A stretch of 43,679 nucleotides of DNA from contig CACWZI010000025.1 in NCBI GenBank assembly GCA_902765305.1, positions 1 through 43,679 of the forward strand. The letters are read 5' to 3'. The notes beneath the pieces are model-generated. The model had not been told where the DNA came from. It saw only the letters and a program-made list of their open reading frames with translations, and searched no databases. A program made the translations under genes and the position numbers. Positions 16,809-33,759 of the stretch are shown here, in pieces. The stretch comes from an uncultured Eubacteriales bacterium. Its GTDB lineage: Bacteria > Bacillota > Clostridia > Christensenellales > Aristaeellaceae. Numbering within the stretch: position 1 is the first letter of the stretch; every line of letters begins with the position of its first letter.

Positions 16809-17893
16809 CCCTGTTCATTCAGCATTGCGGTCTGCTCGGCAAGGGTCAGGGCGTCGATGATCTCGTCGAGGTGTCCCTCCATGATCTCGTCGATCTTGTA
16901 AAGGGTCAGCCCGATGCGGTGATCGGTGACGCGGCCCTGGGGGAAGTTGTAGGTGCGGATGCGCTCGCTGCGGTCGCCGGTGCCCACCTGGACGCGGCGC
17001 TTGTCGGCGTACTCGCCGGCCTGCTGTTCGCGCTGGAGGTCGTAGAGGCGGGACTTCAGCACCCGCATGGCCTTTTCCCTGTTCTGGATCTGGCTGCGCT
17101 GGTCCTGGGAGGTGACCACCAGGCCGGTGGGAATGTGGGTGATGCGCACGGCGGAGTCAGTGCGGTTGACGTGCTGGCCACCGGCGCCGGAGGCCCGGTA
17201 GGTGTCGATGCGCAGGTCGTTCGGGTTGATCTCCACCTCCACGTCCTCGGCCTCGGGCAGCACGGCCACCGTGGCGGTGGAGGTGTGGATGCGGCCGGAG
17301 GATTCGGTGACGGGCACCCGCTGGACCCGATGCACGCCGGATTCGAACTTCAGCTTCTGGAACACGTTCTTGCCAGAGATCAGCACCACGGATTCCTTCA
17401 GGCCGCCCAGCTCGGTCGAGCCGTCCTCGATCATTTCCACCTTCCAGCCCTGGCTGTCGGCATAGTGGCTGTACATGCGCAGCAGCTGCGCCCCGAACAG
17501 CCCTGCCTCGTCGCCGCCGGCCCCGGCGCGGACCTCGAGGACCGCGTTCTTATAGTCATCCGGGTCCTTGGGCAGCAGGGCGATGCGGGCGGCCCGGGTG
17601 GCCTCGTCCAGCTTCGGCTCCAGCTCGTCCAGCTCCTCCCGGGCCAGCTCGGCCATGTCCGGGTCGGAAAGCATCTCCTTCGCGCCTTCGATGTCGTCCA
17701 GCAGCTTTTTGTAGGCCACGGCCACGTCGTTCAGCTCGGAAAGCTCGCTGTGCTGGCGCATCAGGGTCGTGAACAGTGCCGTATCCGCGATGACCTCCGG
17801 CAGCGTGATGCGTATCGAAAGCTCCTCAAACCGCCCCTGGATGGCTTCCAGCTGGGCGGCGATGCGCTGTTGTTCATTGTACGATGCAGACAT
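16805..17893 (-). CDS. prfA: Peptide chain release factor 1
   Basis: A 362-residue RF1 that recognises UAA and UAG and triggers peptide release. The catalytic motif is [15 protein letters not shown]. The stop-codon-reading PxT motif ([14 protein letters not shown]) and the order of domains identify RF1 rather than RF2. The start at 17893 (MSASYNEQQ) has AAAGGAG nine bases upstream; longer readings enter prmC in another frame. prmC, whose product methylates the GGQ glutamine, ends 11 bases upstream. Presence of RF1 argues that UAG and UAA are ordinary stops in this organism. Confidence 0.97.
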
Positions 17894-30569: not shown

Positions 30570-31244
30570 GTGACACAAGTGAGATCAGACAGCCGCAATG
30601 AAAGCCGCAGGAGCGCCCCCGCGCGGGGCGTCGCCGCGAATGGCGCAGCGCGGGGTCATAAAGAAATAAACGCCCATTCCGCAAAGGCGAATAAGCCCGA
30701 AAAGCGCGCCCCGAAGCCCCGGGTGCCCCTGAGGGAAAACGAATCGCTGAAGACAGCCCTGTGGCTGCTGGTGCCCCCCGTAGGGCTTACCCGCATGTGG
30801 CGGCGCAGCTGCACGTGGCACCCGGCGGTCAAGGCCTGCATCAGCGTGGCGATGGCCGCAGTGCTGGTGGCCGTGCTGATTGCACCCACCACGAAGCCTT
30901 CCTCCAACGGCGGCGTCCAACTGGTGACCAACCGTCCCGAGGTGGAGGTCTATGGCCCCGACCTGCCCAGCTTCATCGTCCCCGGCTACACCAGTGAGCA
31001 GACCGACTCCATCATCGTTCCCGCTGTGGAAAACGACGTGCACTACGTCTACGCCGCCGACGGCGCCAAGTGCTACCACGAATACAAGTGCAAGTTCGCC
31101 TACGCCAGCTCCCAGCGCCTGACCGTGTTCGAGGCCTACTACCTGGGCTTCGCGCCCTGCAACCGCTGCAAGCCCCCGCTCTACGACCCCATCACCGGCA
31201 CCGTCACCATGCAGGAGCACGACAAGGATTACGATCCGAGCTGA
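30570..31244 (+). CDS. Single-pass membrane protein with Ada-like Cys4 tail
   Basis: About 224 residues. The N terminus is basic, probably disordered and cytosolic (RNESRRSAPARG to KRAPKPRVPLREN). One membrane helix follows (KACISVAMAAVLVAVLIAP), then an outside region. The C-terminal module CYHEYKCKFA...FAPCNRCKPPLY has the spacing of the small Ada-type metal-binding fold found at the end of some secreted nucleases and MBL proteins. Here it stands alone, without a catalytic domain. The start is uncertain: GTG at 30570 or 30579, both near an AAAGG site and both after the promoter. The function is unknown. Confidence 0.65.
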   Translation: MTQVRSDSRNESRRSAPARGVAANGAARGHKEINAHSAKANKPEKRAPKPRVPLRENESLKTALWLLVPPVGLTRMWRRSCTWHPAVKACISVAMAAVLVAVLIAPTTKPSSNGGVQLVTNRPEVEVYGPDLPSFIVPGYTSEQTDSIIVPAVENDVHYVYAADGAKCYHEYKCKFAYASSQRLTVFEAYYLGFAPCNRCKPPLYDPITGTVTMQEHDKDYDPS

Positions 31245-31259
31245 CGGATAGGAAAAGGA

Positions 31260-31778
31260 TCATGCCTGCTTTGTCTTCACCCAATCGCTGTTGAGTGAGA
31301 CAAACTCATAATCCACCGGAGGGGTCTTGCTCCAAAGCAGATCGGCATTAAAGTGATGGCGCTCCAGCAGAAGGCGGCAATCCGATGCCTTCAGCCTGCA
31401 AAAGTCGGTTTTGAAGTTGCTCAGTCCTCGACTATGCGTCAGATCAATCGCACTGCCGACATCCGTGCACCGGACCATCTCATCCTCGAAATCCAGAACT
31501 TGAAGAAGGTATACGATTTTGATCCGCTTACAGTAGCGCTTGATCAATTCGATATTCTTCCTCAATATTGTTGTATCCGGTTTATCCGTATCAAAGGCCA
31601 GTGCGATGGTCGTACCGGTTTGAATCGTCAGTAGCACCGACTTTGGTATCAACTCCTGTATGGTGTTATATACCTTGACCCTGCCGGAAATGAGCCTGGC
31701 GGGAGACAGCTTCAGCGCATGAATCAGCTGTGCTTCACATTCGCCCTACACAAAATAGAAGCATTTTTCATTCATCAT
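31260..31778 (-). pseudogene. TOPRIM-like nuclease subunit interrupted by an amber codon
   Basis: The reading frame begins at ATG 31778 or 31775, overlapping the stop of the upstream ATPase gene, and reads MMNEKCFYFV, TAG (31746-31748), GECEAQLIHALKL... to the end at 31260. TOPRIM nucleases and DUF4435-like proteins start with a strand ending in hEGxxE, where the first Glu is catalytic. The amber codon stands exactly there, and one base change from GAG would explain it. The second metal motif is present as LAFDTDKPD (DxD). Downstream the frame is open for about 160 codons without damage. The locus is more AT-rich than its surroundings. A TTG restart at 31652 would lack the first motif. The TOPRIM assignment is by motif only. 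Confidence 0.6.
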
Positions 31779-32877
31779 ACCACCCCGCTTCCAACGCATC
31801 CAACAAGGTGTCATCCGGCAGGGTAAAGAATACATCGTTTTCCACGGCGCGCCTGAGGGAATCGGTATTTCTCTTCAGCAGTTCAGAAGCGGAAATTGCG
31901 CTTGTCCTGAATGCGCCACCTTCCCTGTTGCGCCGCAGGAAGGTATAGGCATGCATTGGCAGGTTCAAATCGAGCATGTCGGTATTGTGTGTGGTAAAGA
32001 TCAACTGGCCATTGGCTGGAATGTGATCGATCATAATGCCGAATATGCGTTTCTCTATATCGCTTTGTATATATGAAAAATGCTCGTCACAATAGTAGAA
32101 GCATGGCTCTCCGGACATCATCGACGCGAGGAAAACAGCGACATCGATGCCTTCCTCCGTGCCGCTGGAAAGGATTTCGCGGTTGAGCAGTTTTCCCTCC
32201 TGGATGATGATTTCCTGTTGATCCCTTCGAATGATATAGGTATTCTTCAAATCCCTGGAGGCGGAGACTTCCGTCAACGTTGGATCAAGCGTACCAATGA
32301 TCGCACGCAATGTTTTCAGCAGTCGCGAAGACGCAATGCCCTCCGTGAGCAATTCCCGGTCGATTTCAGGATATGAAAAACGGTATTTCAGGCTTCCATT
32401 CAATTCAGGAGGGGAATACGGATCTTTTGTATCGTTGATCATCGATATATTGGATTCCTTCAGCTTTCGCACGCACATTTCATAGGAGTCATTTTTTTCA
32501 ATCTCCGCAGCGTACATGTGATGCGTATACCGTTTGGGTTTACTGTAGATTACGCTCTCATAGCGACGCAGCACATTGTCGTCATTCACATAATCGATGG
32601 AAAACGAAGCGCCCTCTTTCGTGATCACGCTAAACAATCCGCTTGAAAATCCCTCTTGCAGGGATTCCAATATCAGATGAAGCGCTTTGCCCAAACACGT
32701 CTTTCCCGTTGCGTTTGCGCCCATGAGAACAACGGCTTTCTTGTAGCGAAAGCGCTCCCGCCCCGCCAAATGCTCTGCGTCGATGATGGAATTCACCACC
32801 TTCTTAGGGTAGGTGAAGTTGATTTTAAAATCCTCAAAGCCATAGATGCCGTCCAGTCGCAGGTTCAATACGATCAT
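31768..32877 (-). CDS. ABC/SMC-like AAA ATPase (AAA_15/OLD-type)
   Basis: An ATPase of about 369 residues of the AAA_15/AAA_21 type found in OLD, Septu, PARIS and similar defence modules. It begins MIVLNLRLDGIYGFEDFKINF, has Walker A GANATGKT, a signature-like REILSSGTEEGI, Walker B CFYYCDE and the H-loop FTTHNTDMLDL. The TOPRIM-like gene overlaps its stop codon, implying a two-gene module. The ATG at 32877 has a GAGG site ten bases upstream; an ATG five codons earlier (32892) is possible. Lower GC and lower codon bias than neighbours suggest horizontal transfer. The ATPase itself looks intact. Confidence 0.85.
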   Translation of the reverse strand: MIVLNLRLDGIYGFEDFKINFTYPKKVVNSIIDAEHLAGRERFRYKKAVVLMGANATGKTCLGKALHLILESLQEGFSSGLFSVITKEGASFSIDYVNDDNVLRRYESVIYSKPKRYTHHMYAAEIEKNDSYEMCVRKLKESNISMINDTKDPYSPPELNGSLKYRFSYPEIDRELLTEGIASSRLLKTLRAIIGTLDPTLTEVSASRDLKNTYIIRRDQQEIIIQEGKLLNREILSSGTEEGIDVAVFLASMMSGEPCFYYCDEHFSYIQSDIEKRIFGIMIDHIPANGQLIFTTHNTDMLDLNLPMHAYTFLRRNREGGAFRTSAISASELLKRNTDSLRRAVENDVFFTLPDDTLLDALEAGWYDE

Positions 32878-32913
32878 GGCAAAGCGCCTCATTTCTTCGC
32901 ATTTTGCGAAATA

Positions 32914-32942
32914 ATGATATCATATCCGATCGTAAAAGTCAA
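32914..32942 (-). promoter_or_regulatory. Promoter of the ATPase/TOPRIM pair
   Basis: -35 TTGACT (32937-32942), a 17-base spacer and -10 TATCAT (32914-32919). Confidence 0.6.
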
Positions 32943-32974
32943 CCGAAGCTATACATTGCTTCTTTTCGTGCACA

Positions 32975-33002
32975 AACCCGCAGGGCCAACGCCCTGCGGG
33001 TT
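32975..33002 (-). terminator. Terminator of the amino-acid ABC operon
   Basis: AACCCGCAGGGC, a four-base loop, GCCCTGCGGGTT, then TTG on the minus strand, ten bases after the ATPase subunit stop. Confidence 0.7.
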
Positions 33003-33012
33003 CCTGTCGCTA

Positions 33013-33748
<736 letters not shown>

Positions 33749-33759
<11 letters not shown>

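What the first reader, a model, noticed from the sequence alone, without database searches (positions are those of the whole stretch)
31260..32892. Candidate two-gene defence module (ATPase + small TOPRIM-like protein) with an amber codon at the catalytic glutamate
An OLD/Septu/PARIS-type ATPase overlaps a gene whose frame reads FYFV-TAG-GECE and later AFDTD. TOPRIM nucleases have a Glu exactly where the TAG falls and a DxD motif later. The rest of the frame is intact and the locus is AT-rich relative to its surroundings. A stop at the active-site codon, with the ATPase intact, is what selection against a costly nuclease could leave. Alternatively it is a polymorphism or a regulated readthrough. 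The pairing of this ATPase with a TOPRIM-like protein of about 170 residues is not one I can name.
Basis: partly seen in the sequence, partly recalled or inferred. Interest (0 to 1): 0.72.

Follow-up and report, generated by a model that had tools for sequence, protein, structure and literature searches.

The report
Defence gene pair with broken effector
A bacterium carries a two-gene module resembling an anti-phage system in which the predicted nuclease partner is stopped exactly at its likely catalytic glutamate while the ATPase partner is intact, and relatives of this module often lack a whole nuclease while keeping the ATPase.

Summary
On the minus strand an intact ABC-type ATPase (31768-32892, 374 aa) overlaps a frame (31778-31260) reading ...CFYFV-TAG-GECE...FDTD, otherwise open. 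In 21 of 21 whole or nearly whole homologues aligned the amber position is Glu; in a confident AlphaFold model of one (pLDDT 95) it ends strand 1 and the DxD ends strand 3, as in TOPRIM nucleases. Foldseek was inconclusive. The ATPase is a divergent AbiLi; the partner is no recognised AbiLii but belongs to phrog_10204, function unknown. So: an AbiL-like variant, inserted alone between ordinary genes; a genus-mate has the empty site. Readthrough is unlikely: RF1 is present and 0 of 42 tRNA genes read UAG. Read error or polymorphism could not be tested.

The larger result: of 33 evaluable loci found through the ATPase, 12 have a lost or broken effector, scattered on the ATPase tree, against 2 of 29 canonical AbiL loci. 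A whole effector without ATPase was seen 0 of 11 times. Best reading: a costly effector is repeatedly shed, the ATPase tolerated or kept.

The parts
31768..32892 (-). ABC-type ATPase, AbiLi-like (374 aa): GANATGKT, LSSGTEEG, FYYCDE, TTHN motifs (motif names Walker A, signature, Walker B, H-loop recalled)
   Evidence: translation; PADLOC AbiLi E 6.3e-21 over residues 6-360; alignment of 17 members; 0 deviations in 56 conserved columns
31260..31778 (-). TOPRIM-like effector frame, interrupted; ATG codons at 31778 and 31775 overlap the end of the ATPase gene; stop 31260-31262
   Evidence: intact homologues match phrog_10204; AlphaFold model of homologue L004
31746..31748 (-). amber codon at the position that is Glu in all 21 homologues aligned (motif I, end of strand 1)
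31584..31595 (-). retained FDTD motif (DxD, end of strand 3)
   Evidence: counted from the translation
31249..33012 (.). stretch without counterpart in genus-mate G008, where 183 other bases stand: the two genes and their short flanks
   Evidence: blastn: window 31000-31248 94.0% and 33013-33300 92.4% identical

Best explanation
It is a two-gene, AbiL-like module: an ABC-type ATPase that (inferred) senses infection and restrains or activates a small TOPRIM nuclease made from the overlapping downstream gene. Shown here: the gene pair, its conservation, the TOPRIM-type motifs at the expected structural places in homologues, and an amber codon at the motif-I Glu of this copy with the ATPase intact. 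Inferred: nuclease activity, toxicity, phage defence. The window's copy has lost its effector, probably recently. It belongs to a recurrent pattern: in about a third of the loci judged the effector is broken or deleted while the ATPase is whole, as expected if the effector is costly and the ATPase harmless or useful alone.
For: Conserved pair, Glu and DxD; confident fold; one homologue of ten scanned, L033, matches the C-terminal part of a GajA model at 7.3e-5 (that this part is the TOPRIM domain is recalled); AbiLi is matched by 17 of 17 ATPases. Broken effector in 12 of 33 ATPase-found evaluable loci, 2 more differing only at the C-terminus; 2 of 29 in canonical AbiL, Fisher p 0.007; class samples alone 3 of 7 against 2 of 29, p 0.04. 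On the ATPase tree (11 broken, 17 intact rows) 9 label changes, 7 forced by well-supported branches. ATPases of 11 broken loci depart from conserved columns no more than 17 intact ones, 1.3% and 2.1%, p 0.31. Whole effector without ATPase: 0 of 11. Published: AbiLii of Fusobacterium nucleatum is toxic in E. coli (PMC3985639, passages); AAA partners neutralise TOPRIM_OLD toxins (PMC10440598, passages).
Against: Foldseek gave no significant match (best 50 rows shown each). Profile comparison with canonical AbiLii is very weak (probability 2.5, E 0.019). PADLOC ATPase matches are unspecific: the ordinary ABC-transporter ATPase next door scores AbiLi 2.1e-7 and mad3 1.9e-39, so only the full-length 6.3e-21 to AbiLi carries weight. 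The AbiLi of F. nucleatum showed no antitoxicity. Most named loci are MAGs, so some lesions may be assembly faults; the two sets were not sampled alike (the control only from class genomes, my set also from contig scans), and the tests treat loci as independent. If L085, whose ATPase has another partner, is counted as broken, the control is 3 of 30 and p is 0.018 and 0.07. dN/dS is 0.19 for L021/L031 and 0.33 for L007/L019 (few changes) against 0.03-0.08 for several other close pairs: relaxation or short time.
Confidence: 0.7

Rival explanations
1. The amber codon is a sequencing, assembly or mixed-strain artefact, or a polymorphism carried by part of the population; most cells make the full effector.
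For: The genome is held in 177 contigs at 93% completeness and no reads are on hand; the rest of the frame is intact, so the lesion is recent or unreal (about 0.9 further stops expected at 0.05 changes per site).
Against: Effector lesions of other kinds (internal deletions, truncations) are common in the family (12 of 33 with this one), so a true lesion has a high prior against a random base error on this codon (inference).
Confidence: 0.17
2. Programmed readthrough or recoding of UAG lets a regulated amount of effector be made.
For: The frame is otherwise intact and the stop is very early.
Against: RF1 gene present in this very window, 505 bits against a cut-off of 423; none of the 42 tRNA genes listed has a CUA anticodon (the genome is 93% complete); PylS match far below cut-off, 23 against 178 bits; 3 of 17 long ORFs that I took as genes end in TAG; no homologue aligned has a stop there; usual amber suppressors do not insert Glu (recalled).
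Confidence: 0.02
3. The ATPase without effector is a working state: kept because it acts against phages by itself or because it neutralises the effector of incoming phage-borne copies of the same module.
For: ATPase conserved in the 11 effector-less loci compared; intact pairs occur in viral contigs and a phage record (L030, L032-L034, L038), so a resident ATPase could meet a related effector; YbjD keeps its anti-phage phenotypes without its Toprim domain (PMC13261556, part 1 of 2 read); AAA partners neutralise TOPRIM_OLD toxins.
Against: Recent loss explains intact ATPases without any function; dN/dS values are few and not lower than in intact pairs; no functional data on this family.
Confidence: 0.2
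4. The small protein is not a nuclease but another acidic alpha/beta protein.
For: Foldseek's best hits are various Rossmann-like folds at low score.
Against: Glu after strand 1 and DxD after strand 3, adjacent ABC ATPase, one GajA match, RecR or DnaG/twinkle TOPRIM proteins among the weak structural hits.
Confidence: 0.08

Closest known systems
AbiL (AbiLi/AbiLii), including the RloB-type pairs found by the AbiLii model
   Same: Gene order ATPase then small TOPRIM-type protein, overlapping or adjacent; AbiLi model matched by 17 of 17 ATPases
   Different: Effector about 170 aa with the motif QxxN(L/F)EDE, where the 11 AbiLii aligned have 213-245 aa and SN...E.W...HF; AbiLii model matches only at E 0.003-0.03 and not in all; ATPase matches AbiLi at about 1e-21, three canonical ones at 1e-79 to 1e-88
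PARIS (AriA/AriB)
   Same: ABC ATPase plus separate Toprim nuclease that a single Glu change (E26A) inactivates (PMC12409363, passages)
   Different: AriA match is partial (2.9e-6) and no better than an ordinary transporter ATPase gets (6.1e-13); no AriB match for the effector
OLD proteins and Gabija GajA
   Same: ATPase and TOPRIM parts; effector homologue L033 matches a GajA model at 7.3e-5
   Different: Two separate proteins; no GajB match among the nine neighbouring ORFs scanned
HEC-01 candidate system
   Same: Some effectors match HEC-01B weakly (0.002-0.0075)
   Different: Weak matches only; HEC-01A match of the ATPase only 0.001

Membership tests
AbiL | AbiLi-type ABC ATPase | tested here: met
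   PADLOC PDLC02335 E 6.3e-21 over residues 6-360, 17 of 17 members; profile-profile with canonical AbiLi E 1.1e-10; control: an ordinary ABC ATPase gets 2.1e-7, so relationship is likely but distant
AbiL | AbiLii-family effector | tested here: not met
   no match for the window frame; 3 of 10 members at 0.017 or worse; 3 of 10, best L039 0.0028; profile comparison E 0.019, probability 2.5
AbiL | two-gene order ATPase-effector | tested here: met
AbiL | abortive infection against phage | not testable with these tools
   needs experiment
TOPRIM nuclease | motif-I Glu after strand 1 and DxD after strand 3 | tested here: met
   21 of 21 homologues and model; the window copy has a stop at the Glu
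TOPRIM nuclease | significant structural match to a TOPRIM domain | tested here: inconclusive
   no match at E <= 0.001
PARIS | AriB effector | tested here: not met
   no AriB or DUF4435 (name recalled) match in Pfam or PADLOC for the frame or for 10 homologues
Septu | HNH nuclease PtuB partner | tested here: not met
   no HNH or PtuB match for the partner
Gabija | fused ATPase-TOPRIM protein with GajB helicase | tested here: not met
   separate genes; no GajB match in nine neighbouring ORFs

The most novel reading that the evidence does not exclude
An AbiL-like family with an undescribed short TOPRIM effector type in which the ATPase alone is a selected end state: bacteria repeatedly shed the costly nuclease but keep the ATPase as a stand-alone defence protein or as an immunity factor that silences the nuclease of phage-borne copies of the same module.
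Probability: 0.2. Interest if true: 0.7.

Novelty: new variant of a known kind. Interest (0 to 1): 0.45.

Why it matters
ATPase-TOPRIM pairs recur in bacterial immunity (OLD, Gabija, retrons, AbiL, MADS, PARIS are named together in PMC12409363), and what their effectors cost in nature is little known (recalled). A family in which about a third of the judged loci keep only the ATPase is a natural experiment on that cost and makes it testable whether the ATPase alone protects. It also adds a short TOPRIM-like effector type that the defence library used here does not recognise, so such loci can be taken for orphan ATPases.

Tried and rejected
Readthrough: tested through RF1, PylS and tRNA anticodons and set aside. 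Other frames for the second gene: many stops. Reinitiation after the stop: the first in-frame start-type codon is a TTG at window 31652, 32 codons past the TAG, which would omit strand 1. Defence island: nine neighbouring ORFs by Pfam are an NlpC/P60 wall hydrolase, a DnaJ-domain protein, ABC transporter ATPase, permease and two solute-binding proteins, three without a match; none is a defence gene by PADLOC beyond the unspecific ATPase matches of the transporter. Foldseek against PDB twice and BFVD once: no significant hit. Plasmid records: effector no match, ATPase one distant hit; phage records: two ATPase hits. Papers on recurrent loss of such effectors: four searches gave 11 papers (10 listed), 0, 3 and 5 (4 listed); I saw titles and abstract beginnings only, opened none of them, and none of the listed ones is plainly on this. 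Most subscription papers are not held. phrog_10204 and phrog_5836 are named in no held paper.

How 33 loci were reached: 40 loci came from ATPase searches (window; L002, L003; L004-L023; L024-L029; L030-L037; L038-L040). Seven were left out: L006, L007, L012 end inside or before the effector; L036 repeats L035; L023 has only part of the ATPase and no effector; L003 and L037 are other families by my judgement (partial, weak ATPase matches). L013 and L025 differ only in the last 16-17 residues and were counted as not broken; as broken the figure is 14 of 33 (14 of 33 against 3 of 30: p 0.005). In L020 and L035 the start of the ATPase lies off the contig.

Full report
The observation. On the minus strand an ATPase gene (31768-32892, 374 aa) is followed by a second frame whose two ATG codons (31778, 31775) overlap the end of the ATPase gene. 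It reads MMNEKCFYFV, TAG at 31746-31748, then GECEAQL... with AFDTD and 161 open codons to TGA at 31260-31262. The other frames hold many stops. Both genes have GC 0.48; the two flanking genes measured have 0.61-0.62.

What the genes are. The ATPase's best PADLOC match is AbiLi, 6.3e-21 over nearly its whole length, the next 8e-8; all 17 family members scanned match AbiLi; Pfam gives AAA_21 above its cut-off. As a control, the ordinary ABC-transporter ATPase beside it scores 2.1e-7 to AbiLi and 1.9e-39 to mad3, so weak ATPase matches in this library mean little; the long AbiLi match stands out. With X at the stop the second frame has no match of note in Pfam, PADLOC or NCBIfam. Three intact homologues scanned match phrog_10204 (6e-11 to 1e-13) and the ATPase phrog_5836 (5e-40), both of unknown function. 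Further loci: 20 from GTDB contigs, 18 of them Clostridia by title; 7 of 391 class genomes including the own one (E <= 1e-30); 1 of 396 order genomes, the own one (E <= 1e-30); 2 of 150 relatives, own and G074; 8 viral contigs; one plasmid and two phage records.

The amber position. tblastn of the second frame finds its homologue right behind related ATPases. In 21 of 21 whole or nearly whole homologues the amber position is Glu; the invariant columns are E10, G11, G31, D62, D64, N74, Q92, E97, E99, K122, W148. AlphaFold of homologue L004 with 18 rows gives pLDDT 95, pTM 0.89: strand 1 is 5-9 and strand 3 is 56-62, so the Glu and the DxD stand at their ends, as in TOPRIM domains (recalled). 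One of ten homologues scanned matches a GajA model at 7.3e-5 (profile 453-542 of 604). Foldseek gave no match at E <= 0.001 in PDB (two models) or BFVD; RecR and DnaG and DnaG/twinkle TOPRIM proteins are among the weak hits. TOPRIM is likely, not proven.

Is the stop read through? The RF1 gene lies in this window (16814-17869 minus, 505 bits, cut-off 423). PylS is far below its cut-off. The 42 tRNA genes listed were typed, 30 and 12: none has a CUA anticodon; the genome is 93% complete. Three of 17 long ORFs that I took as genes end in TAG. So this copy most likely makes no effector. Error or polymorphism cannot be excluded without reads.

Age and arrival. After the stop 52 of 1449 single changes would make another stop, about 0.9 expected at 0.05 changes per site, so the lesion is probably recent. 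In genus-mate G008 the same neighbours stand without the module; the window matches it up to 31248 and again from 33013, with 183 other bases between. The inserted stretch holds the two genes and short flanks, no mobility gene. Neighbours by Pfam are wall hydrolase, DnaJ-domain and amino-acid-type ABC transporter genes ('amino-acid-type' from the family-3 binding protein, recalled).

Recurrent effector loss. Each locus was scanned with profile HMMs of both proteins over its open stretches. Of 40 loci found through the ATPase, 33 could be judged (exclusions are listed under tried and rejected). Whole effector: 19 (L004, L008-L011, L015, L016, L018, L022, L024, L026, L028, L030, L032-L034, L038-L040). 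Differing only in the last 16-17 residues: L013, L025. Broken: 12. These are the window (stop at the Glu); L002 (only a remnant at motif I, weak match E 0.09); L005 (stop and internal deletion); L014 (runs into another frame after position 93); L017 (internal loss of 42-76 with the DxD; its title is not marked MAG); L019 (loss of 26-125); L020 (end replaced after 126); L021 (cut after 68); L027 (frame changes near 9 and 134); L029 (first 122 positions gone); L031 (loss of 59-128 with the DxD); L035 (nothing sure before position 84; a weak match to 2-16). No two lesions are alike. L023, outside the 33, has only part of an ATPase and no effector.

Controls. Canonical AbiL pairs from 361 class genomes gave 32 ATPase places, 30 fetched: 27 effectors whole, 2 broken (L080, L082), and L085 has another kind of partner. 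12 of 33 against 2 of 29: Fisher p 0.007; class samples alone 3 of 7 against 2 of 29: p 0.04. With L085 counted as broken: p 0.018 and 0.07. The class draws for the two families differ in size (391 and 361 genomes), and most of my 33 come from other scans. Searching the same 391 genomes with the effector profile gave 8 genomes: the 7 above and G779, which has only a fragment and no ATPase nearby. With the viral contigs (9 loci) 11 whole or nearly whole effectors were found, all beside an ATPase (L060 shows only its last 27 residues); 8 of these 11 are loci already found through the ATPase. By gene length alone, 0 ATPase-only lesions among 12 would have p about 1e-6, but the loci were found through the ATPase, so this is biased and I do not rest on it.

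Is the ATPase still constrained? In 11 effector-less loci the ATPase departs from 95%-conserved columns in 1.3% of cases against 2.1% in 17 intact loci (p 0.31). On the ATPase tree of 33 rows, 28 of them labelled, the broken label needs 9 changes, 7 forced by supported branches, no fewer than shuffled labels (8.9), so it is not clustered. dN/dS is 0.19 for L021/L031 (both broken, differently), 0.33 for L007/L019 on few changes, 0.075 for L005/L006, and 0.03-0.04 for the intact pairs L009/L010 and L009/L015 at near-saturated dS. This does not separate useful retention from recent loss.

Mechanism. By analogy with AbiL, PARIS and OLD proteins the ATPase would sense infection and restrain or activate the nuclease (inferred). 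From papers: AbiLii of F. nucleatum is toxic in E. coli, its AbiLi did not counter it (PMC3985639, passages); AAA partners neutralise TOPRIM_OLD toxins of C. algidicarnis and S. agalactiae (PMC10440598, passages); AriB of PARIS cuts tRNA and E26A is its inactive Toprim mutant (PMC12409363, passages); YbjD keeps its phenotypes without its Toprim domain (PMC13261556, part 1 of 2). A toxic effector held by the ATPase would explain both asymmetries: effectors are lost while ATPases stay, and whole effectors were not seen without ATPases.

Verdict. A real, AbiL-like pair with an effector type that the defence library misses, interrupted in this genome at its likely catalytic codon. New variant of a known kind; the repeated loss of the effector is the part worth following.

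Noticed in passing
G000:C104:6918-7553 (L159 2149-2775): The same genome has another small TOPRIM/AbiLii-like ORF (208 aa from its ATG, CEGYEDYHYF...FCDTD) near a contig end; AbiLii model E 2.3e-7.
   Followed up: partly
L002 1310-1403 and 2719-2811: In G074 the orphan ATPase lies between two copies of a 62-nt repeat (90% alike, partly palindromic) and a 33-nt repeat (85%), about 1408 bases apart; only a motif-I remnant of the effector is left.
   Followed up: partly
L038 4004-5603: In phage NatCom_17901 (Ca. Heliusvirales) an intact pair sits between the portal and terminase genes, on the opposite strand to them.
   Followed up: no
L085 downstream of the ATPase: An AbiLi-type ATPase is followed by two short ORFs and an ORF of about 300 aa instead of AbiLii; partner unknown.
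   Followed up: no
L067 (G779): An effector fragment (first 78 positions) without ATPase lies beside two ORFs that look to me like an AbiEi/AbiEii pair (by eye).
   Followed up: no
L014 7091-7660: The effector's first 93 positions run in frame into a stretch that looks to me like an acetyltransferase (by eye).
   Followed up: no
window 33016-33759 against PADLOC: An ordinary ABC-transporter ATPase scores mad3 1.9e-39 and AriA 6.1e-13 in PADLOC: defence labels from ATPase models alone can mislead.
   Followed up: yes
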